Positions 1 through 34,400 of a stretch of DNA of 40,795 bases are shown here, one piece after another. Source of the DNA: Candidatus Avelusimicrobium pecoris. Its GTDB lineage: Bacteria > Elusimicrobiota > Elusimicrobia > Elusimicrobiales > Elusimicrobiaceae. The notes beneath the pieces were generated by a model, which was given only the letters and a program-made list of their open reading frames with translations, searched no databases and was not told where the DNA came from. The translations under genes and the position numbers were made by a program. The stretch lies in contig CACWMG010000010.1 in the NCBI GenBank assembly GCA_902761975.1, positions 1 to 40,795 on the forward strand, read 5' to 3'. How positions within the stretch are numbered: the first letter of the stretch is position 1; each line of letters opens with the position of its first letter.

Positions 1-2
1 AT

Positions 3-409
3 AATAAGAAGACTGGGGAAAAAATGAGGGTGGTGAATTTGCTGCAATTCACTAATATCAATGTACTTCCTTTTTCAGACAATATACCGGCAGAGGTCAT
101 TACCTATTTGGATCCGACGGTTGAAAGCCTGCGGTTTGATGAAAAAGATCAAAAAGCAGTTATTCGCCTGAAGTTCAAGGGAAAAGAAGAAATCGTGATG
201 AATAATCCGATTCAGCTAAATAATTATTTGTCTTCCGGTACTGTAAAGGGTATGATTACGTTTACGTTGGCCCAGGAAGTATTACAAAAGGGTGGTTACA
301 TTGTCGTTGATGAGGTGGAGAACCACTTTAATAAAGAAATTGTAACGACGTTGATGCGCTTCTTTATGGATAGTAAGTTAAATAAGAATGGCGGCACCTT
401 GATTTTTTC
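3..409 (+). pseudogene. AAA-family ATPase fragment (AAA15-like), truncated at both ends
   Basis: The reading frame is already open at the left edge, so the first Met at 24 is probably internal. A Walker-B-like segment, VVDEVENHFNKE (about residues 93-104 from that Met), is followed by a strand ending GGTLIFS. This fits the C-terminal half of AAA15-type (COG1106-like) ATPases, often found in defence or OLD-like proteins. In that family, as I remember it, LIFS is followed by a T-H-Y type motif. Here the frame instead runs into DNA that encodes a GGDEF domain in another frame, so residues after about 130 (to the stop at 533) are not real ATPase sequence. The Walker A half is missing. It is either a genuine gene remnant or half of an assembly chimera. 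Confidence 0.6.
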
Positions 410-817
410 AAACACATTAACGATAATTACGGCCACCAAATTGGGGACTGGGCCTTACAAGAGGTTAGCCGAGTGGTGCGTACCAGCTTACGCCAGACCG
501 ACGTGCCGTGCCGCTTTGGGGGGGACGAAATGATGATTATGCTCCCCAGCACCAATAGTGAAGAATCCAAAATTATCGCCAAGCGTCTTAAAGAACGCAT
601 CAATGCCCTTACTTTGCCCACCAAATACACGGGGGGGGAGGAAGTCCACATTTCCATTAGCCAAGGGATTGCCACCTATCCTATGGACGCAAACAGCACG
701 GAAGAACTACTGGAAAAAGCCGACAAAGCCCTTTACGTAGTCAAGAAAAACGGACGCGGATTCTTTGCGGTGTACCGCGAAGTGGCCGACCAAACCCACG
801 ATTACAAAAAAGAATAA
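401..817 (+). pseudogene. GGDEF (diguanylate cyclase) domain, C-terminal fragment
   Basis: Read in the frame ending at the stop at 815-817, the sequence gives FKHIND, then YGHQIGD, then RFGGDE at about 515-532, followed by ISQGIATYP and a helix with ADKALYVVKKNGR. These are the substrate-binding, active-site and C-terminal signatures of GGDEF domains, which make cyclic di-GMP. The active-site loop is intact as GGDEM. Everything upstream of the DxDxFK motif (usually a sensory domain and the first GGDEF strand) is missing. The upstream DNA belongs to an ATPase in another frame, and there is no credible start codon with a ribosome-binding site. As it stands the gene is broken. If the junction is an assembly error, the real gene continues on another contig. 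Confidence 0.8.
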
Positions 818-847: not shown

Positions 848-876
848 TTGACAATCCTCTTAAAACTTGCGAAAAT
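848..876 (+). promoter_or_regulatory. Candidate sigma70 promoter for the FlgD-Ig/PorV genes
   Basis: A perfect -35 (TTGACA, 848-853) is followed after 17 bases by a weak -10 (GAAAAT, 871-876, four of six matches). It would start transcription near 883, giving a leader of about 125 nt before the ATG at 1010. Confidence 0.45.
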
Positions 877-1009: not shown

Positions 1010-4000
1010 ATGACAAAACTTCAGCATTTTTTCAAAACTTTTTTTAACGTTCGGACGGTCGTTACGTCTATTTTCTCAATTATTTTGGTGGCCATGTGTG
1101 TTCCGTTATCCCAGGCCCAAACTGTAAATACCCAAAGTACTGGGGTGTATTATCGTGAAGGGGTAAGTTCTGCAAGTGAAGCCCTTTACTGCAACTTTTC
1201 TCCAAGTGATTTAGATGCAAATGATGATAGAAGTTTTGCTTTTGGTCCTAAGCCAACAAGTAATCGTACAAGTGATGACCCCTGGGTAAGTTCCGGTTTG
1301 ATTGAATATGACCAACCCTATCCCGCTCCTACACAGGACAATTATTATCCCAACCATTGTTTGGGGTTGTGTGCCCAATTTTCTTGTAGCAACTTGCCGG
1401 TCGGTCAATCTACCTACTCTATTGCGTTTCCGCTCCAACGTATTACGTTTGATATTTTCAAATATTACAACGGCAAAAACCCTAAAAACCCGGATGAATT
1501 ACCCACTATTCGGTCTATTGATGTTTATCCCAAAGGCAATAGCGAGAATAATAGCGGGAATTATAAAGACTATACCTGTGGCTCTTATCACTGTACAAAT
1601 GCCGGATCCGACGACGGTACTGATTTAGCCGATTGTTTAGGGGCCCACTGGATTTGTGATGGCACCAACGAAGGCACAAGTAAGTGCTGGCGTTCTACTA
1701 TGTCTTCGGATGAGTGTACCTCCTATGGTACCTACGGACATAGTGGGTATGATTGTTATTACTATCATGATGGAGTTGTGGCGAGTTCGGCGGATGTTTA
1801 TCAAGGGTGTAATAGAGGTACCGGCCATAGCGATTGTCTGTTATTTGACTATAACGGTGCTGAAACTAACAAAACTTTATCTTTCTGTACAGGTTGGGAC
1901 GGTTTTTATGAAATGGCGGGCGAATTTGGTAAATCCAACGGCCAATTCGGTTTCCGTGCCACGGCTTATACCAACGTTCCTTCGGACGGTGTAATCGCAG
2001 ACCGCATTGAAATTGAAGAAACCGGCGTTTATCCCGGCCACAACGGCGCTACCCAAGTGCCGATACAAATTGACGTAACCAACGTCCACACCGTGCGCAG
2101 TACGCCCAGCCTGGTGGGGACGATTACCCCGGTATCTGCCCAACCTTATACATTTACCTATCGGTTGAGTAAAGATTCGGACGTGCGTATTGCCATTTTT
2201 GATGCCTCTACGTTAGATGACGCTATGTACGCGTATGCGGCGTCGGACCAAGCGCAAGGGAACACCTCTAACCAAACCAGTTTTGCGGCTAGCTTTGGGG
2301 ATGCTACCAAAAAGATTGTCCGCACCTTAGTAGATTGGCAACCCCGCACCGGCGAAGGCATGAAAGGGACCGATAAGGATACCCAAATTGCCGATTTTGA
2401 CTCGTGGGATGGGCGCAATGATGCGGGATTATTACTCCCCGCGGGTAACTATTTAGCTTCTATTCAAGCCAAATCCCAAGACGAATGGCCCGGCATTGAT
2501 TTCTCCCGCGCCGTTACGCGCCAAGTATCCTTAGACCCATTGAAACTAACGGACGTACAAGTAACCGGGCTGAATAAAAAATCTACCGCTTACGCTACTA
2601 TTTCTTATGTACCTACCGAAGCTTCCACCGTGTATTGGGAAGTTTATACGCCTGGTACCAACTTTAAAACGGTGGTGGCTACGGAAGAAGGACATCAAGT
2701 GTCTGCCGTGCTCACCAACTCTTCTGCCCCTACAGGGACGGGCCCTGTGCTTGAAAACACAGGCACCCTGGTGTACCGCAGTTCTGAGCAGAAATCCGGC
2801 CGTATGAACTATACCCAGCGTTGGGACGGTACCTGCCAAGCCCTGGACGCAAGTGGCAACCCCACCAATTGTACACGCACGTACGCTAAAGGCGAGAAAA
2901 AATCCAACGGGCAAATTGCCACGGCGGGTGAAACCGAAACGTTTGCTTACGGTGCCCCCATGCCGGACGGCAACTACGTCTACGTATTATGGGCGGAAAT
3001 CCCCTATAATGGGTGCTACAAAAACGCCGCTGCTACCACCTCAGGCAATTATCACGGGGCCCCCAGCTTTACGGCAAATGCAACTTGTGAATATTCTGCG
3101 GCCAACAACAACAAACAATTTACCGGTGTAAAAACCTTAAAATATACCACAGGTACTTTACCTTTGGAACGTGGTTTAGTGGGTATTACCATGCAACCGG
3201 TTGCGTATGCTACTTTGGGCTCTACGCCCAATGCCTACGGCATGGATCCGTTTAAGTTCAAATACGCCTTAGACCGCGACGCACAAGTAATTGCCACCAT
3301 AGAAAATACCGCCGGGGTGGTCGTCAAATACCTCACGTTGCAGGAGGGCGAACCTGGCGTTGCCCAGCAGTTAAACGAACTCTCTTGGGACGGGCGCGAT
3401 GAACAAGGCCGTATGGTGTACCCCGGTACTTATATGTTCCGCGTCAAAGCGCTAGACGCTATGTTCCCGGCACAATCTAACGAAGCCATTACCATATTCC
3501 CTGTGGATATGTACCGTGTGGTAGATGTGTCCACTACGGACGTATATGGCGATTCTAATGCCAAAGCTACCATTTCTTACCATTTGTCTAAAACGATGAA
3601 TGCGCAGATTAACATCTATAATAAGGACGTAGTCATCCCGGATTATAACAGCACTATCGGGGATTATAACTACGCGACGGTAACCGCTACCTACTCGGGC
3701 CAAAGAAACGGGGTTACTTCGTTAAGTAATGTATCTATCACGCCTACGGGCGGGGTAGCCGCCACCAGCGGTACTATTCCGCAAAACGGGTCCTTAGTAG
3801 AATATACAGCTAGCGGCTCGGATGTGTACCGCAATATGTGGACCAGTGCGGCTGAGTATAGCATCGTGGGCGACCGTGATAAAAACGCCGATTTAACTGT
3901 CCAAGGTGCCAACAGCAACGAACCTGCTACCGGTGCCTATACGGTTTACTTAAAACAGGAAAAACTAAACATAAATGCCGATACAACTGCGGTGTGGCCG

Positions 4001-5917
4001 CCCCGTATTTGTAACAAAACCACGGATAGTGCCATTTTTACGAATAACTACGTAGATCCGGCTAAGGTCAACACGAACAAAACGGCTTGTATCTATGTAA
4101 ATGATACGTCGTTTACGAACTATCCGGCCAACGCACAGGAAGCGGCCTCCGGCGTGGTAGATGTGCGCTTGCAACCGATCCACACCTTTGACCGCTCCAA
4201 GCTAAGCTATGGGGACAACGCCATTAACACCGAAGAGTGGGACGCGCTTTATTTCTACAATCCTACTCCGGCGGAAGGGCGCCATACAGCTGAAGAAATT
4301 GCCAAGTGTAAAAACACCAAAGAAAAGGCCAACTGCCCTTACGAAATGGTGCCGGACGGTCAGTATCCGTTCTATCTCTCGGCGCGCTCCAACGAGCCGT
4401 TTAACCGCTATTATTATGATAATTTGCGCGACGGTGCAAACACTACCTATAATAATATTTCCGGTTCGCCGTTTAAAACGCAGGCCGAAATTAAACAAGA
4501 AAACTACCTCTACGCCTCGGACAAAGTGGTCAGCAAAATTAACGTAACCCGCGGCCCGGTGTATTTCTTGGATGGTATGGTGGATGTGTTCCCCAACGCG
4601 CCGCAGCTGTTTAACGCATCTTCCACCACGCTTACGTTTATCCCGCCGTACGAGATTAACTTTGCCATCTCCCGCGCCGCCACGGTAGAAGTAGCCGTCG
4701 TTGCGCTGGAAGCGGGTATGTGCTCGCCGGTAACGGACAACGTCAAATCTAGCACTGTAAACGTGTACGAATCGCGCACCAACGTGGCAGGGGACATTTG
4801 TAAGTTCCTCTCTACCATGACTATTTTGAATACAGGCAATTTTGATGCCAACGCGATTCGCAAAATGTATTGGGACGGTACGGACCATAACGGCAATTAC
4901 GTCAAACCCGGTATTTACGAGTTCCGCCTTACCGCGCGCAATTATCCGGACCCGGGCTTGTACCAACCTACGGTAAAATCTATTACTAAAAACATTGATT
5001 TGTTGAAAGTATATGACCTATTGGAAGCGGATAATTATGCTATTTCTACCCGTGGCCAGGATATGAAGATTGGTTATCAGGTCTCTGTGCCTATGAAAGT
5101 AGCTATCCAAATCTTCAAACCGGGTACCACTATTTACGACTATTCCAAAGGCACGCTTCGCAACCCGACTACGGGCAAAGAAGTCAAAGATATTCACGAA
5201 GTACTTGTGCGTTCTATTGTGGGTATCCGCCCCGGTACGACCCTTATTGAGGAAGTGTGGGACGGACGCGATTATGCCCAGCAAGAAGTGCCGGACGGAA
5301 TTTATCCGTTCCGCTTTGTAACCTCGCTTGATTCTGCCGCGATTGACAGTGTAACGGGCGAAATCTTGTTTGGGGATGACACTTCTACAGACCGCACCAA
5401 GTGGAAAGTCAACCGTGTGGCGGATACTTACCAGTATCAAAACTTGCATAAGGCTACGGTAGCAGTGGGTGACGGACGCTTTGTGTGCGACGATTGGAAG
5501 AAAACAGTTTTCTTCTACCCCAACCCGTTCAACGACGCTAGCAAAGGTACCTTGGAAATTACCAAGATGCCGGTGCCGGGTACGGTATCCATTAAGTACT
5601 TCAACTTAGCGGGCGATATGGTACGCGATAGCGACTACACCTGTGTGGACGCCAACAACTACCAAACCACGATGGGGGAACGGCTTTACTTCCAACCGGA
5701 CAATAATGTCAGCTCCACCCGTTTAACGCCCGAGGAGTTAGACCCGCAAACCGGTGCTTTCCAAAACATCCGCAACGCAGCGTTGCGCTGTAAGTGGGAC
5801 CGCACCAACCAACACGGTAAAAAGGTAGCGCGCGGGGTGTACTTTGGCTTGGTAGATTTTAGAGCCTACAACGGGCGCGAACACTGCCAAAAAGTGGTAA
5901 AGATTTTAATCCCGTAA
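1010..5917 (+). CDS. Giant secreted protein with repeated FlgD-like Ig domains
   Basis: This 1635-residue protein has a signal peptide (basic start, hydrophobic core about 15-31, LSQAQ cleavage region) and should be exported. After a Cys- and Tyr-rich N-terminal region (about residues 60-300) come FlgD-type Ig modules, recognised by WDGR/WDGT followed by G..VxxGxYxFR. They occur near residues 465, 792, 1287, 1416 and 1595. The C-terminus has YPNPF near 1502, then FNLAGDMVR, WDRTN and a final KVVKILIP, the arrangement of a FlgD-like C-terminal domain resembling type IX sorting domains. The ATG has AAGGGA about 10 bases upstream. The next gene encodes a PorV-family barrel, which in other bacteria works with such C-terminal domains. 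The likely role is a surface or pilus-associated adhesin (inference). No catalytic motif was seen. Confidence 0.8.
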   Translation: MTKLQHFFKTFFNVRTVVTSIFSIILVAMCVPLSQAQTVNTQSTGVYYREGVSSASEALYCNFSPSDLDANDDRSFAFGPKPTSNRTSDDPWVSSGLIEYDQPYPAPTQDNYYPNHCLGLCAQFSCSNLPVGQSTYSIAFPLQRITFDIFKYYNGKNPKNPDELPTIRSIDVYPKGNSENNSGNYKDYTCGSYHCTNAGSDDGTDLADCLGAHWICDGTNEGTSKCWRSTMSSDECTSYGTYGHSGYDCYYYHDGVVASSADVYQGCNRGTGHSDCLLFDYNGAETNKTLSFCTGWDGFYEMAGEFGKSNGQFGFRATAYTNVPSDGVIADRIEIEETGVYPGHNGATQVPIQIDVTNVHTVRSTPSLVGTITPVSAQPYTFTYRLSKDSDVRIAIFDASTLDDAMYAYAASDQAQGNTSNQTSFAASFGDATKKIVRTLVDWQPRTGEGMKGTDKDTQIADFDSWDGRNDAGLLLPAGNYLASIQAKSQDEWPGIDFSRAVTRQVSLDPLKLTDVQVTGLNKKSTAYATISYVPTEASTVYWEVYTPGTNFKTVVATEEGHQVSAVLTNSSAPTGTGPVLENTGTLVYRSSEQKSGRMNYTQRWDGTCQALDASGNPTNCTRTYAKGEKKSNGQIATAGETETFAYGAPMPDGNYVYVLWAEIPYNGCYKNAAATTSGNYHGAPSFTANATCEYSAANNNKQFTGVKTLKYTTGTLPLERGLVGITMQPVAYATLGSTPNAYGMDPFKFKYALDRDAQVIATIENTAGVVVKYLTLQEGEPGVAQQLNELSWDGRDEQGRMVYPGTYMFRVKALDAMFPAQSNEAITIFPVDMYRVVDVSTTDVYGDSNAKATISYHLSKTMNAQINIYNKDVVIPDYNSTIGDYNYATVTATYSGQRNGVTSLSNVSITPTGGVAATSGTIPQNGSLVEYTASGSDVYRNMWTSAAEYSIVGDRDKNADLTVQGANSNEPATGAYTVYLKQEKLNINADTTAVWPPRICNKTTDSAIFTNNYVDPAKVNTNKTACIYVNDTSFTNYPANAQEAASGVVDVRLQPIHTFDRSKLSYGDNAINTEEWDALYFYNPTPAEGRHTAEEIAKCKNTKEKANCPYEMVPDGQYPFYLSARSNEPFNRYYYDNLRDGANTTYNNISGSPFKTQAEIKQENYLYASDKVVSKINVTRGPVYFLDGMVDVFPNAPQLFNASSTTLTFIPPYEINFAISRAATVEVAVVALEAGMCSPVTDNVKSSTVNVYESRTNVAGDICKFLSTMTILNTGNFDANAIRKMYWDGTDHNGNYVKPGIYEFRLTARNYPDPGLYQPTVKSITKNIDLLKVYDLLEADNYAISTRGQDMKIGYQVSVPMKVAIQIFKPGTTIYDYSKGTLRNPTTGKEVKDIHEVLVRSIVGIRPGTTLIEEVWDGRDYAQQEVPDGIYPFRFVTSLDSAAIDSVTGEILFGDDTSTDRTKWKVNRVADTYQYQNLHKATVAVGDGRFVCDDWKKTVFFYPNPFNDASKGTLEITKMPVPGTVSIKYFNLAGDMVRDSDYTCVDANNYQTTMGERLYFQPDNNVSSTRLTPEELDPQTGAFQNIRNAALRCKWDRTNQHGKKVARGVYFGLVDFRAYNGREHCQKVVKILIP

Positions 5918-5930
5918 AAGGAGTTCATGC

Positions 5931-5941
5931 TATAATATAAT
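5931..5941 (+). promoter_or_regulatory. Overlapping -10-like TATAAT boxes before porV-like gene
   Basis: Two overlapping TATAAT hexamers (5931-5936 and 5936-5941) lie in the 39-base gap after the giant gene. No -35 is visible. An AAGGAG (5918-5923) serves a two-codon ORF (ATG CTA TAA at 5927) and not the real start at 5957. Confidence 0.25.
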
Positions 5942-5956
5942 AGAGCATAAAAATTT

Positions 5957-6937
5957 ATGAAACTATCAAAACTAATTACTGCAGGTCTTTTGGTGGGGGT
6001 GCTTAGCACAAACGCCATGGCTATTTCTAAAAATGCGGGTACTAGTGCCGCGGCATTTTTAAAGATTGATGCGGGTACTCCACGTGCCCAAGCTTTAGGT
6101 AATGCTTTTGTATCAGTGGCGGACGGCCCGGAGGCGTTATTTTGGAACCCGGCCGGGGCTGCCAGTGCCACCACGCGTGAGGTACAATTTACGTATTTAG
6201 ACTATTTACAAGGGTACAAAGCGCGTACGCTTGCTTATTTGCAACCTATTGGTAAAACTATTATTGGTTTAACCGTGAACTATATGGATATGAAAAACTT
6301 TGACTTTCGCGATTGGCAAGGCCGTCCCAATCCGGAAGTGGGTGTTCCGGTGCAGAACTTTGTAGGTAGCCTTTCTATTGCCCGTGGATTTTTCAACCAA
6401 CGCTTGCAATTAGGTGGTACGGCTAAGTATATATCCGAACGGTTGGATAACGGAAATGGGGGGCATAACTATTATGATAACGTCGGTTTTGACGCGGGTG
6501 CTAAATTACGCATGGTCAACTGGCTTGGTTTTGGTGCTGCCGTGGTGAACTTAGGGGACAAAGACGAAATGCCTCGTGGGTTTCGCGCAGGGGCCGATTT
6601 GAACACCCGTTACTTTACCATTTCCGGTGAATATATGAAATACCGTGATGACCGTGGCCGTTACGGGGTTGGTTTAGAAGTCCATATTCCCGAAGATTTG
6701 CTTCAGGTTGCCCGGTTTGATTTGCGCGTAGGATATTACACCCGTGATAATACCGGTATCAATACGGATGATAAATGGGTCAAGAAAATTGGCTTAGAAG
6801 AAACTTCCCGCGTGTCCTTTGGGTTTGGTATTTACAGTGCTGAACTTTTTGGCTACGGGGCTTCTATTGACTATGCCGTTACGCCCTTTGGGGCACTGGG
6901 TACTTCGCAACAGATTGCGATTGCCTTACAGTTTTAA
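5957..6937 (+). CDS. PorV/PorQ-family outer-membrane beta-barrel protein (UPF0164-like)
   Basis: This 326-residue protein has a signal peptide (about 1-22, cleavage after NAMA). The mature start carries the family hallmark: GTSAAAFLKI, then RAQALGNAFVSVADG, then LFWNPAGAA (about residues 28-72). Alternating amphipathic strands follow to the end, which finishes in an aromatic residue (ALQF) typical of outer-membrane barrels. PorV acts in Bacteroidota type IX secretion as a shuttle for proteins with C-terminal sorting domains. Relatives in other phyla are uncharacterised and often sit beside FlgD-Ig proteins, as here. The start lacks an obvious ribosome-binding site (only GAG at 5943), but the signal peptide fixes it. 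The Tad genes begin 3 bases downstream, suggesting co-transcription. Confidence 0.8.
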   Translation: MKLSKLITAGLLVGVLSTNAMAISKNAGTSAAAFLKIDAGTPRAQALGNAFVSVADGPEALFWNPAGAASATTREVQFTYLDYLQGYKARTLAYLQPIGKTIIGLTVNYMDMKNFDFRDWQGRPNPEVGVPVQNFVGSLSIARGFFNQRLQLGGTAKYISERLDNGNGGHNYYDNVGFDAGAKLRMVNWLGFGAAVVNLGDKDEMPRGFRAGADLNTRYFTISGEYMKYRDDRGRYGVGLEVHIPEDLLQVARFDLRVGYYTRDNTGINTDDKWVKKIGLEETSRVSFGFGIYSAELFGYGASIDYAVTPFGALGTSQQIAIALQF

Positions 6938-6940
6938 CGT

Positions 6941-7120
6941 ATGTTAAAAACAGGAAAGATACTTTTTAATAAAAAAGGCCAAAGCGCGGTAGAATATATC
7001 ATTGTGGCGGCGGGACTAATGGGGGCGTTCTTATCTTTCTATGTGTTGTATTCGCACTTGGTTCCCCAACAGTTTGACCAAGGTGCTCGTGTGATTTTGA
7101 CAGATTATAGTACCAATTAA
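6941..7120 (+). CDS. Short Flp/TadE-type prepilin (class III signal)
   Basis: This 59-residue gene begins with a short basic leader ending KKGQSAVEYIIVAAG. That is the G|QxxxEY cleavage site of Flp-type (type IVb) prepilins, with Glu at +5 and Tyr at +6, followed by a hydrophobic helix of about 20 residues. The C-terminal part (about 25 residues after the helix) is short. It starts 3 bases after the porV-like stop and lacks a clear ribosome-binding site, so translation is probably coupled. It is likely a minor pilin beside the better-expressed pilin at 7144. An active-site-free protein this small would be missed by automatic callers, but the motif is strong. Confidence 0.85.
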   Translation: MLKTGKILFNKKGQSAVEYIIVAAGLMGAFLSFYVLYSHLVPQQFDQGARVILTDYSTN

Positions 7121-7143: not shown

Positions 7144-7368
7144 ATGAAATACATCGTCATGTTGCAAAACAAAGTAGATGCGCTCAAAGCCAATGCCTTG
7201 GGGATGCTCACTAAAAAAGAAGGGCAAAACACGGTAGAATACGTGCTGATGCTCGTAGTAGTAGTGGGGATTGCCTTAGGGGTAGGTGCTGCTGTAAAAG
7301 GTTTTATGCCCGAAGTGTATGAAAACGTCAAGCAGAAAATCTTGGGCGGTATTAACAGCGCCAACTAA
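7144..7368 (+). CDS. flp: Flp-type pilin, probably the major Tad pilus subunit
   Basis: This 74-residue prepilin has a leader of about 35 residues ending KKEGQNTVEYVLMLVVVVG, which contains the G|QxxxEY site for the prepilin peptidase TadV/CpaA. A hydrophobic polymerisation helix and a short tail (KGFMPEVYENVKQKILGG) follow, as in Flp pilins. The strong ribosome-binding site AGGAGGAG (7133-7140) is the best in the operon and suggests high expression. It sits between another prepilin and a TadE-like pseudopilin at the head of the Tad machinery. The leader is longer than the usual 10-26 residues. The peptidase itself is not in this window. Confidence 0.88.
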   Translation: MKYIVMLQNKVDALKANALGMLTKKEGQNTVEYVLMLVVVVGIALGVGAAVKGFMPEVYENVKQKILGGINSAN

Positions 7369-7371
7369 ACT

Positions 7372-7857
7372 ATGCAAATTTTTCATAGGAGGCGCGGCCA
7401 GGTAACGGTGGAGCTGATGCTCATTTTGCCGGTATTCATGCTGATGATCTTCTTTGTGCTTGAATACGGCAACATTGCTTATCGTACACTTGTATTAAAC
7501 CACGCTTCCTATGAATTTGCTCGTATTGCTGCTTTAGTAGGGGTAGATGCGCCCAGTGGCCCGGCAAACCGGACCGTTATGCAGCAGAAAATAGACCAAG
7601 CCAAGCGCAAGGTCTTTGGACGCGAAGCTGAACGGTTAAGTGTCCAAATCAAGGTGGAAACCACCGGTATGGACCCGATGTTTAAGCGTCACCGCCACCA
7701 AGATGTAGTGGTAACACTTACGTATCCGGCTAAATTAGTGTTCCCGGGAACTAGCTATATTTTAGCGGATGAGCCCCGCCGGGAGGGAATCCGTAAGATT
7801 TACGCCTCGGCGCGTATGCCGGTAGAGAAAGGTTATTTAAGTTCGGACCAACGCTAG
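7372..7857 (+). CDS. TadE-like pseudopilin
   Basis: This 161-residue protein opens with MQIFHRRRGQVTVELMLILP. The basic leader and RGQxxxEL site are the TadE-type pseudopilin processing signal, followed by one hydrophobic helix (about residues 13-33). The body (residues 35-161) is predicted extracytoplasmic and contains FARIAALVG and a beta-rich region. TadE-family pseudopilins are needed for Flp pilus assembly, possibly as initiation or tip subunits. The start is 3 bases after the major pilin stop, with no separate ribosome-binding site, implying translational coupling. A second TadE-like gene lies at 23216. Confidence 0.8.
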   Translation: MQIFHRRRGQVTVELMLILPVFMLMIFFVLEYGNIAYRTLVLNHASYEFARIAALVGVDAPSGPANRTVMQQKIDQAKRKVFGREAERLSVQIKVETTGMDPMFKRHRHQDVVVTLTYPAKLVFPGTSYILADEPRREGIRKIYASARMPVEKGYLSSDQR

Positions 7858-8673: not shown

Positions 8674-9420
8674 ATGACAAATAAAAAATGGATATATGGA
8701 GTATCACTTGCAGTTTTTTTAGCCAGCTTGCTCGCACCGTCTTGCGCGCAGGCCAAAAAAACGCGGCTGGTAGCCGTTAGTGCAGATGTTGTAGAAATTA
8801 GCGGTACTTTGCAAAGTGTAAAAGGGTTTTCTTGGAACCAGCTCTTTGACTTTGAAGAATCCACGATTCCCGGCGTGTTGTCCTTAGGGTCGTTTGAACG
8901 TAAAACCGCGGTTACCACGCGTTTGCGTTTAATGGAAACCGAAGGGCGTGCCCAGGTGCTATCTAACCCCAAAATTGTAACTTCTTCCGGCAGTGCCGCC
9001 AAAATTACGGTGGGTGGTAAAGTCCCTATACCGGTTGTAAATAATCAAGGGGTCGGTTCCCAACTGGAAGAATACGGTATTTTGCTTAACGTGCTTCCCA
9101 CCATCATCCCGGAGCGCAATAATTTAATTGACTTGCAAGTCCAATTATCCGTTTCCACGGTGGACTATTCCCGTACCGTTGTTATTGGTACGGCCACAGC
9201 CCCTTCATTTACCAACCGTGATGTGGAAACGCACGTGGAACTTAACAGCGGGGAAACATTGGTCATTGGCGGCTTAAAAAGCAGTGCGCGCAACGTGAGC
9301 GAAGACCGTGTGCCGTTTTTGGGCAAATTGCCTTTAATTGGCCTTTTATTTAAGAATAAAGACGTGACGGAAGAACAACGTTCTTTGTTCCTGTTTATTA
9401 CGGTAGAAATTGTAGAGTAG
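8674..9420 (+). CDS. cpaC: Tad secretin CpaC/RcpA, short form
   Basis: The 248-residue product has a signal peptide (about 1-27) and then passes almost directly into the secretin core. Matching segments are AQVLSNPKIVTSSG, then ITVGGKVPIPV, LEEYGILLNVLPTI, and the C-terminal secretin signature VPFLGKLPLIGLLF. It forms the outer-membrane pore for the pilus. Canonical CpaC proteins are roughly 450-500 residues, with a BON or N-domain region before the core. Only about 60 residues stand there now, so this is a minimal secretin. The gene looks intact: it has a good ribosome-binding site (GGGATGAG) and no upstream in-frame extension, because cpaB ends 11 bases before. Missing periplasmic functions may be supplied by CpaB or by the FlgD-Ig or TPR proteins. 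Confidence 0.88.
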   Translation: MTNKKWIYGVSLAVFLASLLAPSCAQAKKTRLVAVSADVVEISGTLQSVKGFSWNQLFDFEESTIPGVLSLGSFERKTAVTTRLRLMETEGRAQVLSNPKIVTSSGSAAKITVGGKVPIPVVNNQGVGSQLEEYGILLNVLPTIIPERNNLIDLQVQLSVSTVDYSRTVVIGTATAPSFTNRDVETHVELNSGETLVIGGLKSSARNVSEDRVPFLGKLPLIGLLFKNKDVTEEQRSLFLFITVEIVE

Positions 9421-9429
9421 TCACTGGCT

Positions 9430-11745
9430 ATGGCAGAAGAAAAAGAAATTAAATCGGAAGCTAAAATTATTGCGTTTTGCGGCCCTAAAGAAGGTGCCGG
9501 CAAAACGACGCTTGCGCTGAACTTAGCCCTAGGTTGGGCCGGTATCCAAAAACGTCCGGTGCTGGTAGTCCCATTGGACCCATTAGCGCGTCAAGAACAC
9601 AGTTTTTATTTAAACATCAAAAAACCCGTTAGCGTGGCAGATATTTTGCAAACGCTAGGTAATACCAACATTGCTGTAGTAGGGGGGTTACTGCGGGGTA
9701 AAATTTCCATGTCCCAGTGGGGGGTAGGTCTCTTGCCGCTAGGCAATACACGCGCGCAAGTGGCATCCATTAGCCCTAAAATTTTAATTCCCATTTTATC
9801 GCGCCTGGCGCAAACGTTTGATATTTTCTTGGATGTAGATTCCAGTTTCCCTATGCAGGCCTTTGCCTTTGATATTGCAGACAAAGTATTCTGGGTTACC
9901 CAGGCCACGCGCACGCACCTCAATGCCACGGTACAGCTTTTTAACGATTATAAAGAACGCCACTACCCCATGGACCGGTTAAGCGTCATTTGTAACGCTT
10001 ACGATATGCCCGGCTCTATTGCATATGACGAAATCGAACATTTTTATGCTTCGCTAGGCAACGATATTGACGTTTTCCTCCCCTGGGATGAAGACGTAAT
10101 GAGCACGTCCAACCGGCGCGAAGTGGAAATTATTGTCAATCCGCAGGCCGAATGGGTCAAAGGGCTTCGCTTGGTACTTGCCAAAATCCGCGATTTAAAA
10201 CCGGCTCCCAAAGATTGGACGGCCTCTGTAAGTGATGCGGAATTTACCCAAGCCGCGCAAGAAATCTGGAGCCCGGTGCTATTTAACGAGGGTAAAACCC
10301 AAACTACCATCAACCACGTAGCGGATGAGGACGAAAAAGGTGGCACTAAACTCTCGTTTTGGGACGATTTAAAACAAAAAGTCCATAAAGAAGTAGTCCA
10401 CACGCTTGAAATTGAGCATATTGTGGTGAGCGAGGAAAGCTCCGCCAGTGCCCAAACCCGCAAACGGGTGGCCGCTATTGTGGATGATATTTTACAAAAG
10501 CAACCCAATTTGCAGTTTTCGCGTGAACAGCGTGCCCGTTTTTCGTCAGAGCTACTAGACGAGATTTTGGGGTTAGGTCCGCTGGAAGTCTTAATGCGCG
10601 ATCCGGCCGTTACCGAAATTATGGTCAATGCCTTTGATAAAATTTTCATTGAGCAAAAAGGGAAACTTACCCTTACCAAATACAAATTTAGAAATAACGA
10701 CCAAGTGGTACAAGTCATTAAACGTATTGTGGCCCCGCTCGGCCGTCGTATTGACGAATCTGTGCCGCTCGTAGACGCGCGTTTAAAGGACGGTTCCCGT
10801 GTTAACGCCATTATTTCGCCGCTTGCGGTATCCGGCCCTACGCTTACCATCCGCCGTTTCTCGCAAAAGCCGTTCGGGCCCGAGGATTACTACCGCTTTG
10901 GTACCATTACCCCCGCCTGTATGGAATTTATTAAGCAGTGCGTTAAAATCCGCAAAAACATCATTGTCTGCGGCGGTACGGGTACCGGTAAAACGACGTT
11001 TTTAAATGCTATTTCCGGCTATATTGCGGATGATGAACGTATCATCACGGTAGAAGATACCGCGGAACTTCGTTTGCAACAACCGCACTGGGTATCGCTG
11101 GAAAGCCGTCCGCCAAACGTAGAAGGCAAAGGGGCGGTTACGATTCAAGATTTAGTCAAAAACTGTTTACGTATGCGTCCGGACCGCATTGTAGTCGGGG
11201 AGTGCCGTGGTGGCGAAGCGTTGGATATGTTGCAAGCCATGAACACCGGGCACGAAGGGTCCTTAACTACTATTCACGCCAATACCCCGCGCGACGGTTT
11301 ATCTCGTTTGGAGGCCATGTGCTTGCAAACAGGGGTAGATTTGCCGGTGCGTGTAATTCGTGAAATGATTTCTTCGGCTGTTAATATGATTGTACAGCTT
11401 TCCCGTTTTTCGGACGGTTCTCGTAAAGTAACCTACATTACCGAAATGCACGGTATGGAAAACGGCGAAATTTTATCTACCGATTTATTCCGCTACGTGC
11501 AAACGGGCGTAGATGAAAACGGCAAAGTGCAAGGGGTGTTTGCACCTACAGGCAACTTGCCTACTTTCTTTGATGAATTTGCGGCCAAAGGTTGGCCGGT
11601 GGACTCAGGCGTATTTACCCAGGGGGCCATTAAGTTGGATGCTCACGGCGAGCCCGACGTGAAATCCCTGGCAAACGCAGCGCAGCCCGCGGATCGCCCA
11701 CAGGCTCCGCAAGCTCCGTTGCCGCCTGCTCCGCCGCAGCTGTAA
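9430..11745 (+). CDS. tadA: TadZ/CpaE-TadA/CpaF fusion ATPase
   Basis: Two proteins that are normally separate are joined in one 771-residue frame. Residues about 12-270 form a MinD/ParA-like domain: deviant Walker [11 protein letters not shown] at 18-27, LDVDSSFP as the Walker B region, and VICNAYD. This matches TadZ/CpaE, the polar localisation factor. Residues about 300-720 are the secretion ATPase TadA/Cpa[29 protein letters not shown], Walker [10 protein letters not shown] near 515, [12 protein letters not shown] near 583, and the [12 protein letters not shown] box. The C-terminal tail is Pro/Ala/Gln-rich. No frameshift or internal stop separates the halves. TadA powers pilus extension at the inner membrane with TadB and TadC, which follow. 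The start has no strong ribosome-binding site and lies 9 bases after the secretin. Confidence 0.92.
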
Positions 11746-11754
11746 CGTAAACGT

Positions 11755-13377
11755 ATGAAACAAAACCGCGTACTTGTTAAATTAGGCTGTGTGCTTGGGT
11801 TGTTCCTCGTAAGTGTAGGAACGGCACAGGCCCGTTCGTTAGACGCTAAGGATCTGCGCAAAATACAATGCGCGCAGGATAAAATGCGTATTTTGGCGGG
11901 TTTTTTTAATGTAGAGTCCAAAGAAACAAGTTACACGCTTACCGATTTATGCGGCGCCGCTGCTAACAAGCCGGTTACTATGCCGGATTGGTTTAGTGAA
12001 GAACTGGCCCGTATGGACAAAAATAAAGTTGTTTTTGTTAAGACAGAAAATCAAACTTATAGCGAGGTGGATTTGTGGCGCCAGGCTTTTTCTAACGTGT
12101 ATTTGTATTTGGACCGCGCCGCCCAATCGCTAGATCCCAACCGACCTATTGTGCTGGAACAACTTTCCCGCGGTTATGTAGGAAACCGTCTTAATTTAAT
12201 GGCCACACTGGACCGTTTAAATAAAGATTTACTGCGTGGTAACCAACTGCTGGTGATGAAAGACAGTATGGACGGCCGTGCGCGTTCCATGCTTTCCACG
12301 TTGGAGCTGATTAACAACGAATTTTTCAGCACCATTGAATCGTTTTCCAGTCCGGTTTCCCAGCGCGACGACAAATACCGCAAATCCGTCATGGCCGTGG
12401 TGGTACTAGCCAATCATCTCTACGCGCAATTTATGGGCAGTCCTATTCCGGCCACTCCACCTAGCCCTGAAACATACCAAACCACACAAGCGGACCGACT
12501 TTTTAGCTTAATCCTCATTTTAATCGGTTCTGTGTTGGCTGGGATGTTTGTTTATTTCTTTATTAAAACCAAGAGCGATAGTATTGACCGTGCCTTGGAA
12601 GATTACCGTGCCAAAAGTGTGGCCTGGGCCGAAGATTTCAACCGTCAATTTATTACCATAGATGTCAAATACATTGTGATGGGTACCCTGGCTGTATTTA
12701 TGATCATTGGGTTTATGTTTGGGTGGATGATTGGCGGCTTTTTAGGGGTCTTTGTATTCTTGGCTATTTTAGCGATGGGGGGCGTCTTTAGTATTCGGGT
12801 TCCTGCCGCTATTTTAGATACTCTTAAACGGAGTCGTGGGGTCAAGGTCAACAAGCAACTCATGGACGCGCTGATTTTACTTTCTAACTCCTTACGTTCG
12901 GGGATGGACATTGTACAAGGTTTTGAAATGGTTTCTAAAGATTTACTGCCACCCATTTCGGACGAATTTGGTCTGGTGGTTAAAAACTACCAACTGGGCA
13001 CTCCTTTTGAGCAAGCTTTAGAAGGCATGGTCAACCGGGTAGATAGCCGTATGCTTTCTTATATTGTTAAAGCCATTATTATTCAGCGCCAAGTAGGTGG
13101 TAATTTGCCGGTTATCTTTGCGCGCTTGGTAGAAAACATCCGTGAAGAAAGTAAATTGGAAGAGAAACTCCAGGCTATGACGGCCCAACAGCGCATCCAG
13201 TCTATTGTAGTGAGTATTATGCCCTTTGTTATGATGATGGTGATGTTTGTATTTAACCCCACCCAAATGATTAACTTTTACACCAGCCCCATTGGGATGA
13301 TGGTATTTCTATTTTGTATTGTGTGGATTTTCATTGGGATGCAGGTGCTTCGCAAATTGGGGGACATTAAGGTTTAA
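11755..13377 (+). CDS. tadB: TadB-like inner-membrane platform protein with extra periplasmic domain
   Basis: The C-terminal half of this 540-residue protein is a type II secretion F (T2SSF) domain: ILLSNSLRSGMDIVQGFEMV, then GTPFEQALEGMVNR and QRQVGGNLPVIFARL, with flanking transmembrane helices. This is the Tad platform protein TadB. The N-terminal 245 residues are unusual. They begin with a signal peptide (ending TAQA, about residue 26) and form an alpha-helical exported region with a CAQ...CGAA cysteine pair. A transmembrane helix at about 248-270 follows. Usual TadB proteins are about 300 residues and lack this domain. It may contact the secretin complex from the periplasmic side (inference). 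tadC starts 2 bases after the stop. Confidence 0.85.
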   Translation: MKQNRVLVKLGCVLGLFLVSVGTAQARSLDAKDLRKIQCAQDKMRILAGFFNVESKETSYTLTDLCGAAANKPVTMPDWFSEELARMDKNKVVFVKTENQTYSEVDLWRQAFSNVYLYLDRAAQSLDPNRPIVLEQLSRGYVGNRLNLMATLDRLNKDLLRGNQLLVMKDSMDGRARSMLSTLELINNEFFSTIESFSSPVSQRDDKYRKSVMAVVVLANHLYAQFMGSPIPATPPSPETYQTTQADRLFSLILILIGSVLAGMFVYFFIKTKSDSIDRALEDYRAKSVAWAEDFNRQFITIDVKYIVMGTLAVFMIIGFMFGWMIGGFLGVFVFLAILAMGGVFSIRVPAAILDTLKRSRGVKVNKQLMDALILLSNSLRSGMDIVQGFEMVSKDLLPPISDEFGLVVKNYQLGTPFEQALEGMVNRVDSRMLSYIVKAIIIQRQVGGNLPVIFARLVENIREESKLEEKLQAMTAQQRIQSIVVSIMPFVMMMVMFVFNPTQMINFYTSPIGMMVFLFCIVWIFIGMQVLRKLGDIKV

Positions 13378-13379
13378 CT

Positions 13380-14267
13380 ATGAGTAACTTGATGCTAGTG
13401 ATGCTTAATTTGTTGTTGCTGATAGGGGCGGGTGCCACATTTATATTTATTTTCCGCCTGTTCGCTCCTTCCACGCAAAAGGAAGAAATCGTGGATATTG
13501 CAGTGCGCCGTTATAAATCGGCTTCCAGTTTTGCCCGTTTAAACCCCGATGAAAAACTTATTGATAAACTGGCTGTGTTTTGTTTAAATACGTTTCATTT
13601 AGAAGATTCTTTAGAAGAAATGTATTTGCAATTGGGTAGCCCGGAAAAGCCCCAACCCGTGGATATTTTGTACACTAAAATTATTGCGGCGGTGGCGTTG
13701 CCGGCAGCCATGATGTTGTTATTTAAGTCGTTTTGGCCCATTATTTTCTTGCCGGTAGGTTTTATCTTGCCGGATGTGCTTATTAAAGGGCGCATCCAAA
13801 AACGCCAGCAAGAAATTTTGGGTAACTTTTCTACTACGGTGGATTTGGCGGCGTTAATTATTGAGTCCGGGCTCGACTATTTAACCGCGTTTGAAAGAAT
13901 TATCAAAGTAGCGCGTGAAAAAACAATTTTGGAAGAAGAATTAGATAAAACCATTGGGGAAATTAAACTGGGGTATTCCCGGCGCGAAGCCCTAGAGCGT
14001 TTTGCCGCCCGTACGGGTGTGCAAGAAGTGCGCTCGCTAGTGGGGCTGATTATCCAGTCGGACGAACTGGGTACCAGCCTGGTGGATTTGTTGCGCAATT
14101 TCTCGGCCGATTTACGCTCCCGCCGTTTGAACAAGGCCGAAAAATTAGCTGCCCAGGCCTCCACCAAGATGTTGTTTCCCTTATTTATCTTCATCTTTCC
14201 TACGATTTTTATTTTAATTTTGTCCCCGATGCTCAGCGGCCTTTTTTCCGGCGGACTCGGGTTTTGA
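13380..14267 (+). CDS. tadC: TadC-like inner-membrane platform protein
   Basis: This 295-residue protein has an N-terminal membrane helix (about 4-26), two more at about 94-135, and a T2SSF domain. The domain is marked by LAALIIESGLDYLTAFERI, GEIKLGYSRREALERFA and IIQSDELGTSLVDLLRNF. A C-terminal helix ends in LSGLFSGGLGF. Length and layout match TadC, the second Tad platform protein, which pairs with TadB around the ATPase TadA. It begins 2 bases after tadB, so the two are surely translated together. Confidence 0.88.
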   Translation: MSNLMLVMLNLLLLIGAGATFIFIFRLFAPSTQKEEIVDIAVRRYKSASSFARLNPDEKLIDKLAVFCLNTFHLEDSLEEMYLQLGSPEKPQPVDILYTKIIAAVALPAAMMLLFKSFWPIIFLPVGFILPDVLIKGRIQKRQQEILGNFSTTVDLAALIIESGLDYLTAFERIIKVAREKTILEEELDKTIGEIKLGYSRREALERFAARTGVQEVRSLVGLIIQSDELGTSLVDLLRNFSADLRSRRLNKAEKLAAQASTKMLFPLFIFIFPTIFILILSPMLSGLFSGGLGF

Positions 14268-31468: not shown

Positions 31469-34400
31469 ATGCCAGAGGAAAAGAAAGATAGTTTCACCTT
31501 TAGCGATAAGATTAAAAACAGCAAACCTGCTGGCAGTAAATCTTTCGCTAAATCGTCCGCCAAAATTGGCCGGGACGGCAAACCCAAGGCAACGCTTTTT
31601 GAGCGTACCCGCCGGGATGCGCCGTTCTTTATTGCCGCTTTGGTTGCGCTGTTGTTATTGCCATTTTTGTATAAGTACAGCGGCCAAGCGACCGAGGATC
31701 AAACCTTCGCTCCCGGAATGGAAAGCGCCGAGTTTGACCCCGAACGCTACGGCTTTGATACGGCCATGGTGGAAGACCCGGACGGGCAAATTGCCCAGTT
31801 AGCCGGGCGCGATTCCCTCTCTTTAATTAAAGGGTGGGGGAACAACCAAGAAGAAGACTATGCCCGCGACGATATGGACCTGGACGCCTCTGCCTCTTAC
31901 GAGGGGGACGCCTCCGGCGAATATGCAGCCGAACGGCACTCTTCCTCTGAAATGGACGTAGAAGAAAATACGACCAACATTTATAAACGCCGTGCCCGTG
32001 CCGGTACCCGTGCCGCTTTCCGCCGTACTCAAATTGGTACGCTTAACCCGGCCGGATTGCGTCGCCCGGGTGGTAGCCGTTTAGGCATTAACAATTGGGG
32101 CGGCGGCCTTAAAAGTGCGGCCCGTAAAGTAGGTTCCGGCCCGCGCCAAGCACCTAAACCGGTTTCTTTGCAACCGCTACGTGCAGCGGGTCCTGCCCGT
32201 TCCTCCTTTGGGCAAGGTGCCGCCCAGGCGGCCCGCAGAGGGTTAGACAACATGGGTAAAGCCAACGCCGTGGAAGCGTTGCGCGACGCGTATGTAAAAC
32301 CCGTGGACCCGACCCGCACCGGCGGAGTTGATTTGTTTGCTGACGGACGCGTGGGTGGCGGCGGTAAATTGGACCATCGCATCAACATTGGCAAAGGTGA
32401 AACGCCGTGGTGGTGGGACATGATGAAAACCCGCATGCAAGAAGAATGGATGGCCCGTTTCAAACGCAAATGGAACTGGATTAACTGGATGGACAAGTTA
32501 GCCCAAAACATTTTAGGCAACCTCTTAAATTGTATTATTACCGGCGATGACGGTGGTGATGTGGATAAATTCTTGGGTATTAGTGTAGGGGGTGGCAGTG
32601 ATCCTACTTGCTGTGGTGTCTCCGAATCCAAAGCAGCCTCTAAGAAGGAAATTGAGGAAGCCGGCGGTTTTGAAAAATGGTGTAAAATTAAAACTAACCA
32701 AGCAAAACTCAAAGCACTTGGGTATAGCTGTTCAACAACCTATAAGGGCGGTGTACAGACTGACGTTGCTCTAGGCCCAGTTGAATCTCGTTTGAAATGT
32801 TTAGGGCTTAACGTAGGTGGTTATGCATCTGGTTCGTTAGGTTTAAATGGTGCCGGCATGGACTGTGCCGATATGCCTAACTACAACGTTATCCCGTCTG
32901 GGCAAGCGCGCAAATGGAACATTTATACCTATGTAGTGGCGCGTAACTACTTCCCGGAGGCGTTAAAGAATGAGTTGAATTTGACTTCTTTAAAGACTAG
33001 AAATGGCAAGCAAAACTTGCTTTGTGCCTCTATGGACCGTGCGCACGGTGGTAGCTCTTTGAACCATGCCGATATTACAGGCGGTGTGGGATATGTCAAA
33101 GCACAACAAGACGCCGCTAGACAGCATGTGATTGCGCAATCCAGGGCTACATCTAACGTGCCTGAGGAACAGCAAGAAATCCGCGAACGCACGCTGGAAT
33201 TGGACCAAGAAGCCTTGGGGGACAGCTGTGTGATTGTGGTTTCCCGCGGTAATGTGCTCCCGTACGAGGCCATGAAAAACAAAATTATGGACCTCTTCAA
33301 AGAATTAGGGGCCAATGAAACGCAGGCTGAAAAAGCGTTCTATCAATTAGATATTATGTACGTGAGCTCTTTTGCGGCCAAGAACAAACTCGCCTACGCG
33401 CAATGGTTTGAGTCGGGCCATCACTTAAAAGGCCTGCTCCCTATGCCGTATTGGGAGTTTGAAAACGCCTACATTGAACACAAAAAGATTACGCACAAAA
33501 AAGATGGCAGCCGTGACAACGTTTACCATAAAAAACGCTGGCGTATTGAAGGCGTAGATATGTTGCGTGGACCTATTTGTTATTACGACAACCTCAACTT
33601 TGAGTGCGGCCCCGAAGATACGGCCACGGCACAGTTGCACTTTAAGCAAGAGAGCTTTAAAGGTGGTTCGGGTGTAAAGCCGTCGGTAGAGGATGTACAA
33701 GTATCGGCTGAGTTCCGCTATCTGGATGAATCCAACGCAGCGGTGGAACAACCCATGATTAACCCGGATACCCGTGCTGACAATGGTTTTACGTTCACCT
33801 ATACGTTTAGCCGTATTTATGAATCAACCAAAGTCAAAAAATCCAGTGAAACCCTCAATCCGGATGGGTTAGTGGGGAATATTATTTGGAGAGCCCAACG
33901 TGGCAAACAAAAGATTGAGAAAGTCTGCCCGCTTAACCTCTCCGGGGACGGCTACACCAGATATGTGCGTGAGCGCGAGTGTACCAGCCCGCAACAAAGT
34001 GCCACATGCTGTGACAAACTGATGGGGGCAACCCCGCACCATTGGGACGCCAGCAAACCGGTTGGTAGCCAGTGTGTGGATGACACTCCTGTGCCGCCGG
34101 TGGACGGGAAAATGACGCGTTTAGCCCCGGTGCTCTCGTGGGTTCCTTTTAACGGCAAAGTAGAGTGCCGTGAAGAAGCGAGTGACGCTGCTAACCCGGC
34201 TGAAAAAGTGTTCGGTAGCTGTGATAAAGTACCGGGTATCGTCAAAAATCAGGACCAAAACTGCGGTTCTCAAATTCCGCTGATGATGGACTCGCAAGCC
34301 GCCGCCACGTTCGTGCAAAACGTTGTTAAAAAATACAACGAAGCGCACCCCAACGCGGCTAAAAAGTTAAGCGATAAGTTCTACGCCAATAAATACCCCA

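What the first reader, a model, noticed from the sequence alone, without database searches (positions are those of the whole stretch)
1010..6937. FlgD-Ig giant protein with a PorV-family partner: type IX-like surface attachment near a Tad locus
The giant protein ends in a FlgD-like C-terminal domain with a YPNPF motif and final Lys-rich strand, similar to sorting domains recognised in type IX secretion, where PorV is the shuttle. The adjacent gene is PorV-like. No other type IX component is visible, so either the rest is elsewhere or the pair works differently, such as with the Tad secretin or as a pilus-linked adhesin.
Basis: partly seen in the sequence, partly recalled or inferred. Interest (0 to 1): 0.6.

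Follow-up and report, generated by a model that had tools for sequence, protein, structure and literature searches.

The report
Type IX-like export, one carrier per cargo
A gut bacterium of the phylum Elusimicrobiota carries a giant surface protein with a type IX-style export tag, its own carrier protein next door and a distant relative of the type IX outer-membrane channel elsewhere in the genome, which suggests that a stripped-down type IX-like export route exists outside the bacteria in which that system is known.

Summary
Window 1010-5917 encodes a 1635-aa protein whose last ~145 residues form a type IX-like C-terminal domain (CTD); 5957-6937 encodes a PorV/PorQ-family barrel. The genome is an Elusimicrobiaceae MAG. 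A profile of it matches solved SprA and nothing else in the PDB. In six genomes 46 of 60 CTD stretches lie directly upstream of a PorV-family gene (0.17 expected), and CTD and PorV divergence correlate (41 pairs, r=0.84). SprA, CTD and PorV are largely lost together in one reduced genus. The PorU domain was found in 1 of 149 genomes; PorM and PorN in 0 of 149, without a working positive control. In the genus the pair heads a Tad pilus cluster (TadE in 41 of 41 loci). Best reading: a type IX-like route without detectable sortase, in which each type A-like cargo has its own PorV carrier, probably also its anchor. In the papers I could search, type IX is confined to the FCB group and type A cargos share one PorV. 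New variant of a known kind; energy source and anchoring unproven.

The parts
1010..5917 (+). Giant exported protein, 1635 aa, FlgD-type Ig domains in the body; cargo
   Evidence: ORF; PF13860 two stretches; ORF ending in the same CTD upstream of PorV in 32 of 41 related loci; 8 loci have no ORF room there (contig starts), 1 (L017) has an upstream ORF that stops early
1010..1117 (+). Probable Sec signal peptide, aa 1-36 (read by eye, no predictor run)
   Evidence: hydrophobic stretch followed by SQA-QT in the translation
3239..3454 (+). Best FlgD_ig domain of the body
5477..5914 (+). Type A-like C-terminal sorting domain with four Cys invariant in 26 aligned members
   Evidence: model pLDDT 74; PorU CTD Z 9.1, PorZ CTD Z 8.0, RemA CTD Z 7.9 among other Ig domains
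5957..6937 (+). PorV/PorQ-family outer-membrane barrel, presumed cognate carrier
   Evidence: NCBIfam PorV_fam 86.1 bits, cut-off 90; 41 related loci
6941..7120 (+). Small prepilin-like ORF (59 aa, GQSAVEY motif), 3 bases after the PorV stop
   Evidence: sequence; a counterpart with the motif in 41 of 41 loci; no Pfam match
7144..7368 (+). Flp-type prepilin-like ORF (74 aa, GQNTVEY motif)
   Evidence: counterpart in 41 of 41 loci; weak Flp1_like E=0.004, below cut-off
7372..7857 (+). TadE-like protein
   Evidence: PF07811 45.8 bits
7907..8662 (+). CpaB/RcpC
   Evidence: PF16976 63.5 bits
8674..9420 (+). Short secretin (248 aa)
   Evidence: PF00263 144 bits, aa 87-248
9430..11745 (+). TadZ-TadA fusion (ParA-like plus T2SSE ATPase)
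   Evidence: PF01656 and PF00437
11755..14267 (+). Two T2SSF membrane proteins (TadB/TadC type), 11755-13377 and 13380-14267
   Evidence: PF00482
14271..15737 (+). TPR protein of the Tad cluster
   Evidence: TPR families
848..876 (+). Promoter-like site upstream of the giant (consensus match only)
   Evidence: 10 of 12; 15 such sites found in the region against 9.1 expected, so weak

Best explanation
The pair is a cargo and its dedicated carrier in a divergent type IX-like secretion route. The giant is exported by Sec (inferred from the signal sequence), folds its type A-like CTD in the periplasm, crosses the outer membrane through the SprA-family translocon encoded elsewhere in the genome, and is collected by the neighbouring PorV-family barrel. 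Because no PorU-type sortase is detected, the CTD is probably not cut off and the cargo probably stays at the surface bound to its own PorV, as is reported for type B cargos and their PorP/SprF carriers in Bacteroidota. Shown by computation: the CTD, the PorV family, a SprA homologue in the genome, repeated adjacency, correlated divergence, largely joint loss, and linkage of this pair to a Tad cluster. Inferred: transport, carrier specificity, anchoring, an adhesive role beside the Tad pilus. Unknown: the energy source.
For: SprA: TIGR04189 matches in 129 of 149 phylum genomes, all below its cut-off; alignment A2 of 16 such proteins matches F. johnsoniae SprA in three collinear pieces at E=4e-35; both PDB sequences matched at E<=10 are SprA; own genome C12:5-4087 plus C35:2-1105. 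CTD: PorZ/PorU/type A relatives, Ig-like model. Pairing: 46 of 60 CTD stretches have a PorV-family gene <=700 bp downstream on the same strand, 0 upstream, 0 on the other strand, 0.17 expected. Correlated divergence: 41 pairs, Mantel r=0.84, p=1e-4; 33 non-redundant r=0.61, p=1e-4; nearest neighbours agree in 29 of 41. Joint loss: SprA/CTD 125 both, 16 neither, 4 and 4 mixed; within genus g25 13 both, 11 neither, 1 and 1 mixed, p=2.7e-5; all 10 genomes without a PorV_fam match lack SprA and CTD matches. Precedent: cognate shuttle encoded immediately downstream of type B substrates (PMC12618676, passages).
Against: PorU domain in 1 of 149 genomes; PorM and PorN 0 of 149, controls silent. Homology of SprA and of the window's PorV is remote and below curated cut-offs; the PorV model is poor (pLDDT 48), and the PorV alignment A4 matches no PDB chain, not even PorV. 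All 13 training CTDs came from PorV-adjacent genes, which favours adjacency. 14 of 60 CTD stretches have no PorV neighbour; in G023 one CTD end lies upstream of opp-like genes, so one PorV may serve two cargos. Four genomes have CTDs without a SprA match (G084, G108, G141, G162) and 10 of the 20 SprA-less genomes keep a PorV_fam match. Correlated divergence may only mean duplication of the pair as a unit. In the own genome only one CTD protein was found.
Confidence: 0.7

Rival explanations
1. The giant and PorV are parts of the Tad machinery: the giant is a pilus-linked adhesin, and the PorV-like barrel or the Tad secretin brings it out without SprA.
For: PorV, two prepilin ORFs and TadE follow each other in 41 of 41 loci of the genus, with CpaB and further Tad genes as far as the loci reach; the order also holds in four genomes of genera g11, g12, g13 and in three of three genomes checked of another family.
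Against: Those three other-family genomes hold 8, 16 and 18 paired CTD stretches, of which one each is the Tad-linked pair that I examined; a second pair of G087 has no Tad gene within the 16 kb fetched. The CTD is of type IX kind and SprA is present.
Confidence: 0.15
2. Canonical type IX secretion with PorU and the PorKLMN motor too diverged to be detected or missing from incomplete assemblies; the giant is cut and attached by a sortase.
For: SprA itself is only visible below cut-off; own genome 85.5% complete; a PorU-type domain is detected in one genome, G046.
Against: Of 122 genomes at least 90% complete and at most 5% contaminated, one has the C25 domain; PorM and PorN 0 of 149, with silent controls.
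Confidence: 0.1
3. Coincidental neighbours: a FadL-type porin after a periplasmic or otherwise exported Ig-repeat protein; the type IX resemblance is shared ancestry of Ig and barrel folds only.
For: Unrelated Ig domains reach similar structural Z; PorV_fam score under cut-off; unrelated fly Brain tumor protein entries score better than PorU in the CTD profile search.
Against: Adjacency 46 against 0.17 expected and 18 of 26 with an independent model, joint loss, correlated divergence, profile matches to SprA and to the PorZ CTD as best PDB hits.
Confidence: 0.05

Closest known systems
Bacteroidota type IX secretion: SprA/Sov translocon with PorV carrier and type A CTD
   Same: SprA-family translocon, PorV/PorQ-family barrel, Ig-like CTD related to TIGR04183, PorU and PorZ CTDs
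   Different: Remote homology; SprA-like ORFs mostly 1700-1900 aa among the rows listed against 2403 in F. johnsoniae; in family f2 many PorV-family genes, most CTDs having one directly downstream, instead of one PorV for all type A cargos (PMC12618676 passages); PorU domain in 1 of 149 genomes, PorM and PorN not detected
Type B CTD substrates with cognate PorP/SprF shuttle encoded immediately downstream (SprB-SprF, Fjoh_3952-Fjoh_3951)
   Same: Cargo gene directly followed by its carrier gene, several pairs per genome, adhesin-like cargos (PMC12618676 passages)
   Different: Here the CTD is type A-like and the carrier is of the PorV/PorQ family; no PorP/SprF search was done
PorZ of P. gingivalis
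   Same: Its CTD is the best PDB match of the CTD profile, E=4e-11
   Different: PorZ is an attachment-complex protein (PMC11285876, passages); the giant is an Ig-repeat protein at a Tad cluster
FlgD hook-cap protein
   Same: Body domains match FlgD_ig
   Different: No flagellar gene was noticed in the window genes scanned; the match reflects the Ig domain only (inference)

Membership tests
Type IX secretion system | SprA/Sov outer-membrane translocon | tested here: met
   Homologue: A2 profile to 6h3i E=4e-35; own genome. Below the TIGR04189 equivalog cut-off
Type IX secretion system | Cargo with a conserved C-terminal sorting domain | tested here: met
   PorZ/PorU CTD 13 of 13, TIGR04183 12 of 13 members at E<=1; PorZ CTD in PDB E=4e-11. 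The window protein passes no type IX signal cut-off by itself
Type IX secretion system | PorV-family carrier | tested here: met
   PorV_fam over full profile, 86.1 bits against 90; relatives above it in 19 of 41 genomes. The model also rings, below cut-off, in 1 of 14 control genomes (Bacteroides ihuae)
Type IX secretion system | PorU C-terminal signal peptidase/sortase (C25 domain) | tested here: not met
   Not in own genome; 1 of 149 genomes
Type IX secretion system | PMF motor and OM hub (GldL/M, GldK/N) | tested here: inconclusive
   GldM and GldN 0 of 149, but no control genome rang; GldL and GldK not searched
Type IX secretion system | PorP, PorT, PorE, SprE, SkpA, Plug | not tested
   no genome searches left
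Type IX secretion system | CTD- and SprA-dependent surface display | not testable with these tools
   needs experiment
Single shared PorV for all type A cargos (Bacteroidota pattern) | One PorV for all type A cargos | tested here: not met
   46 of 60 CTDs with adjacent PorV-family gene in six genomes; 9-36 PorV_fam matches per genome in the 16 genomes of family f2. Within the window's own genome there is one good PorV_fam match and one CTD, so there the point is moot
Tad pilus system (neighbouring cluster) | Flp prepilin, TadE, CpaB, secretin, TadZ, TadA, TadB, TadC | tested here: met
   prepilin identity rests on motif and a weak Flp1_like match

The most novel reading that the evidence does not exclude
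Elusimicrobiota carry a phylum-wide type IX-like system outside the FCB group that works without a PorU sortase and without the GldLM motor: a SprA-family channel serves many type A-like cargos, each extracted and permanently anchored by its own PorV paralogue encoded next door. Reduced gut lineages have pared it down to one or a few cargos, above all the Tad-linked giant. It may resemble an early, anchor-only form of type IX secretion.
Probability: 0.4. Interest if true: 0.78.

Novelty: new variant of a known kind. Interest (0 to 1): 0.64.

Why it matters
Passages that I read place type IX secretion only in Bacteroidota or the FCB group, one stating that its genes are absent from other phyla (PMC11285876 and PMC4793230), and say that type A cargos all use one PorV (PMC12618676). 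NCBI taxonomy puts Elusimicrobiota as a phylum of its own. A SprA-PorV-CTD set across another phylum, with one carrier per cargo and no detectable sortase, would widen the known range of the system, show which parts form its core, and offer a natural test of whether the carrier is also the anchor. The Tad linkage suggests a two-part attachment kit in gut bacteria.

Tried and rejected
PDB sequence search with the PorV-like protein alone (E<=1) and with its 10-member alignment (E<=10) gave nothing. PDB search with the giant gave FlgD at E=0.03 and a chance-like hit at 0.6. The first SprA alignment (5 members, A1) gave no PDB match at E<=1; the broader one (A2, 16 members) did. Pfam has no match at E<=0.01 to the four SprA-like proteins scanned.

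The PorV structure model is poor (pLDDT 48, pTM 0.55); Foldseek lists many barrels, PorV 6h3i_F being rank 7 by E-value with the highest query TM-score (0.46) of the 50 rows shown. I do not lean on it. For the CTD, Foldseek ranks C5a peptidases first and PorU sixth; the top VIA row is an unrelated peptidase (Vpr, Z 9.9) and many Ig domains score near 8, so the fold alone does not identify it. In the CTD profile search of the PDB three fly Brain tumor protein sequences (E about 5e-5) stand between PorZ and PorU; I take them as chance.

The idea that the CTD is far better conserved than the rest of the giant is only partly true: the four blocks of the last 285 residues have 0.72-0.87 mean identity to the window among 23 other near-full-length giants, the other blocks 0.13-0.80. 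The idea that the own genome holds several cargos was not borne out (one CTD), with 85.5% completeness as caveat.

13 of 90 family genomes show no CTD; in seven CTD hits that I fetched from five others the hit is cut by a contig end, which I take as assembly breaks at repeated giant genes; I did not prove this for each genome. A SprA match was present in the eight of those 13 that I checked.

Literature (open-licence papers only): no paper held SprA, PorV and Elusimicrobi together. Type IX or T9SS with Elusimicrobi gave five papers in all; I saw passages of all five and none reports the system in this phylum. The one paper with PorV and Elusimicrobi means porcine rotavirus. Ten papers with SprA, Elusimicrobi and outer membrane were seen in the listing only and look unrelated. 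PMC9143113 was seen in the listing with the start of its abstract. The Elusimicrobium minutum genome paper is not held.
Full report
WHAT IS THERE. The window is bases 1-40795 of contig C10 of a 1.24-Mb, 85.5% complete MAG. Its closest relatives among 41 fetched loci are uncultured Elusimicrobium/Elusimicrobiaceae MAGs, several labelled from rumen, colon, rectum or faeces. The giant (1010-5917) has a signal-like N-terminus, FlgD-type Ig domains in the body and a C-terminal domain that is strongly conserved within the genus, with four cysteines invariant among 26 aligned members. The next gene (5957-6937) is a PorV/PorQ-family barrel. Right after it come two prepilin-like ORFs with the GQxxxEY motif and then a Tad cluster.

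THE C-TERMINAL DOMAIN. A 13-member alignment (A3) was made from four genus CTDs and nine CTDs of other genomes, all from PorV-adjacent genes. Each member matches the CTD region of NCBIfam PorZ and PorU, and 12 of 13 match the type A sorting tail TIGR04183, at E<=1. The best PDB match is the CTD of PorZ (5m11, E=4e-11); then come three fly Brain tumor protein sequences (E about 5e-5, taken as chance), PorU (0.002) and FlgD. The AlphaFold model of the window CTD (pLDDT 74) aligns with the PorU CTD (Z 9.1), the PorZ CTD (Z 8.0) and the whole RemA CTD (76 of 76 residues, 2.1 A, Z 7.9), among many other Ig domains and below one unrelated peptidase.

A SPRA-FAMILY TRANSLOCON. TIGR04189 (SprA) gives sub-cut-off matches in 129 of 149 sampled genomes of the phylum and in 0 of 14 controls; the listed ORFs are mostly 1700-1900 aa. 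Three full-length proteins and the own-genome fragment match SprA at 65-120 bits; the only other NCBIfam row is a 28-bit phage protein match of one of them. An alignment of 16 full-length ones matches F. johnsoniae SprA (6h3i) in three collinear pieces with E=4e-35, and nothing else in the PDB at E<=10. In the window's genome the gene is split over contig ends: C35 (profile positions 2-376) and C12 (416-1766). LptF/LptG genes lie beside it in the two loci scanned (positions).

CARGO AND CARRIER COME IN PAIRS. In six genomes 60 CTD stretches were found, and 75 PorV-family genes after merging fragments. 46 CTDs have a PorV-family gene within 700 bp downstream on the same strand; none has one upstream or on the other strand; 0.17 are expected by chance. 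Per genome: G000 1 of 1, G016 1 of 2, G087 2 of 2, G026 8 of 11, G031 16 of 20, G034 18 of 24. All training CTDs came from such pairs, so I repeated the count with Pfam FlgD_ig: 18 of the 26 stretches listed for G026, G031 and G034 (34 found in all) have the downstream neighbour, none upstream or opposite. FlgD_ig itself rings in 5 of 14 control genomes, so that domain alone is not special to this system. For 41 pairs of three genomes (one second CTD before the same PorV and the four pairs of the other three genomes left out), distances between CTDs and between PorVs correlate: r=0.84 overall; 0.65, 0.95 and 0.67 within genomes; 0.61 after removing close copies (33 left); all p<=0.0011; the nearest neighbour agrees in 29 of 41. 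The pairs have therefore diverged as units. That fits cognate carriers, but duplication as a unit explains it too. Two cargos scanned from family f2 carry fn3, bacterial Ig and beta-helix, or carboxypeptidase-regulatory domains before the FlgD_ig-like end.

LARGELY LOST TOGETHER. In the same 149-genome sample SprA is undetected in 20, the CTD in 20 and PorV_fam in 10. SprA and CTD: 125 both, 16 neither, 4 and 4 mixed. All 10 PorV-less genomes lack both others, but 10 of the 20 SprA-less genomes keep a PorV_fam match. Within genus g25 (26 genomes) SprA and CTD are both present in 13, both absent in 11, mixed in 2, p=2.7e-5. All 20 SprA losses sit in one family (f10), 12 of them in genus g25 and mostly in small genomes, so they are not independent events, and fragmentation may explain some mixed cases.

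WHAT IS MISSING. The C25 domain of PorU occurs in 1 of 149 genomes and not in the window's genome. GldM/PorM and GldN/PorN profiles match 0 of 149, but no control genome rang either, so this is not proof of absence. GldL, GldK, PorP, SprE and others were not searched.

THE TAD LINK. In the 41 genus loci PorV is followed by TadE in 41, and by CpaB and further Tad genes as far as each locus reaches. The giant with its CTD lies directly upstream of PorV in 32; 8 loci start within about 260 bases of PorV, and L017's upstream ORF stops early. The order also holds in four genomes of genera g11, g12 and g13 and in three of three genomes checked of the other family, whose CTD there resembles the window's type. 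In those three it is one pair among many; in the window's genome it is the only CTD found. The reduced gut lineage thus seems to have kept the Tad-linked pair above others. A GGDEF-protein gene (498-532 aa) lies upstream of the giant in 23 loci, which hints at c-di-GMP control of adhesion; that is inference.

MECHANISM. In F. johnsoniae PorV docks on the lateral opening of SprA, binds the CTD and is pulled away with the cargo by energy input; type B cargos use other carriers that then anchor them (PMC10994853, passages). Type B cargos often have their PorP/SprF carrier encoded next to them, and two tested ones need it (PMC12618676, passages). The Elusimicrobiota arrangement looks like the type B logic carried out with type A-like CTDs and PorV-family carriers. 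Without a detectable sortase, retention of the CTD and anchoring through PorV is the simplest fate. Transport, specificity and anchoring are inferred, and the energy source is unknown.

VERDICT. Novelty claims rest on the searches over open-licence papers only.

Noticed in passing
window 1-817: The left contig end joins an AAA-type ATPase fragment (3-533) out of frame to the C-terminal 114 aa of a GGDEF protein (473-817); 23 relatives have the GGDEF gene full length (498-532 aa) at this place. Possible chimera or rearrangement at the contig end.
   Followed up: partly
window 8674-9420: The Tad secretin is only 248 aa, little more than the secretin domain (aa 87-248), with little room for the usual N domains.
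   Followed up: no
window 9430-11745: TadZ-like ParA domain and TadA ATPase are fused in one 771-aa protein; a relative is found at this place in related loci that reach far enough.
   Followed up: no
L088-L094: In several relatives contigs end inside the last 30-45 codons of a giant gene; G023 has a second such 43-codon end upstream of opp-like genes, G043 and G120 have tandem giants. Suggests duplicated giants with near-identical 3' ends.
   Followed up: partly
L083 8581-13201: G087 has a second giant-PorV pair with no Tad gene within the 16 kb fetched.
   Followed up: partly
G000:C16:25642-26742: A second, much weaker PorV_fam match (33 bits) in the window's genome, perhaps another FadL-like barrel.
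   Followed up: no
window 31469-35209: A 1246-aa protein without Pfam or NCBIfam match at E<=0.01, with a hydrophobic stretch near its N-terminus.
   Followed up: no
genus g25 genomes of the phylum sample: Small genomes (0.5-1.4 Mb) of which 11 of 26 lack both SprA and CTD matches and 10 lack PorV_fam as well.
   Followed up: partly
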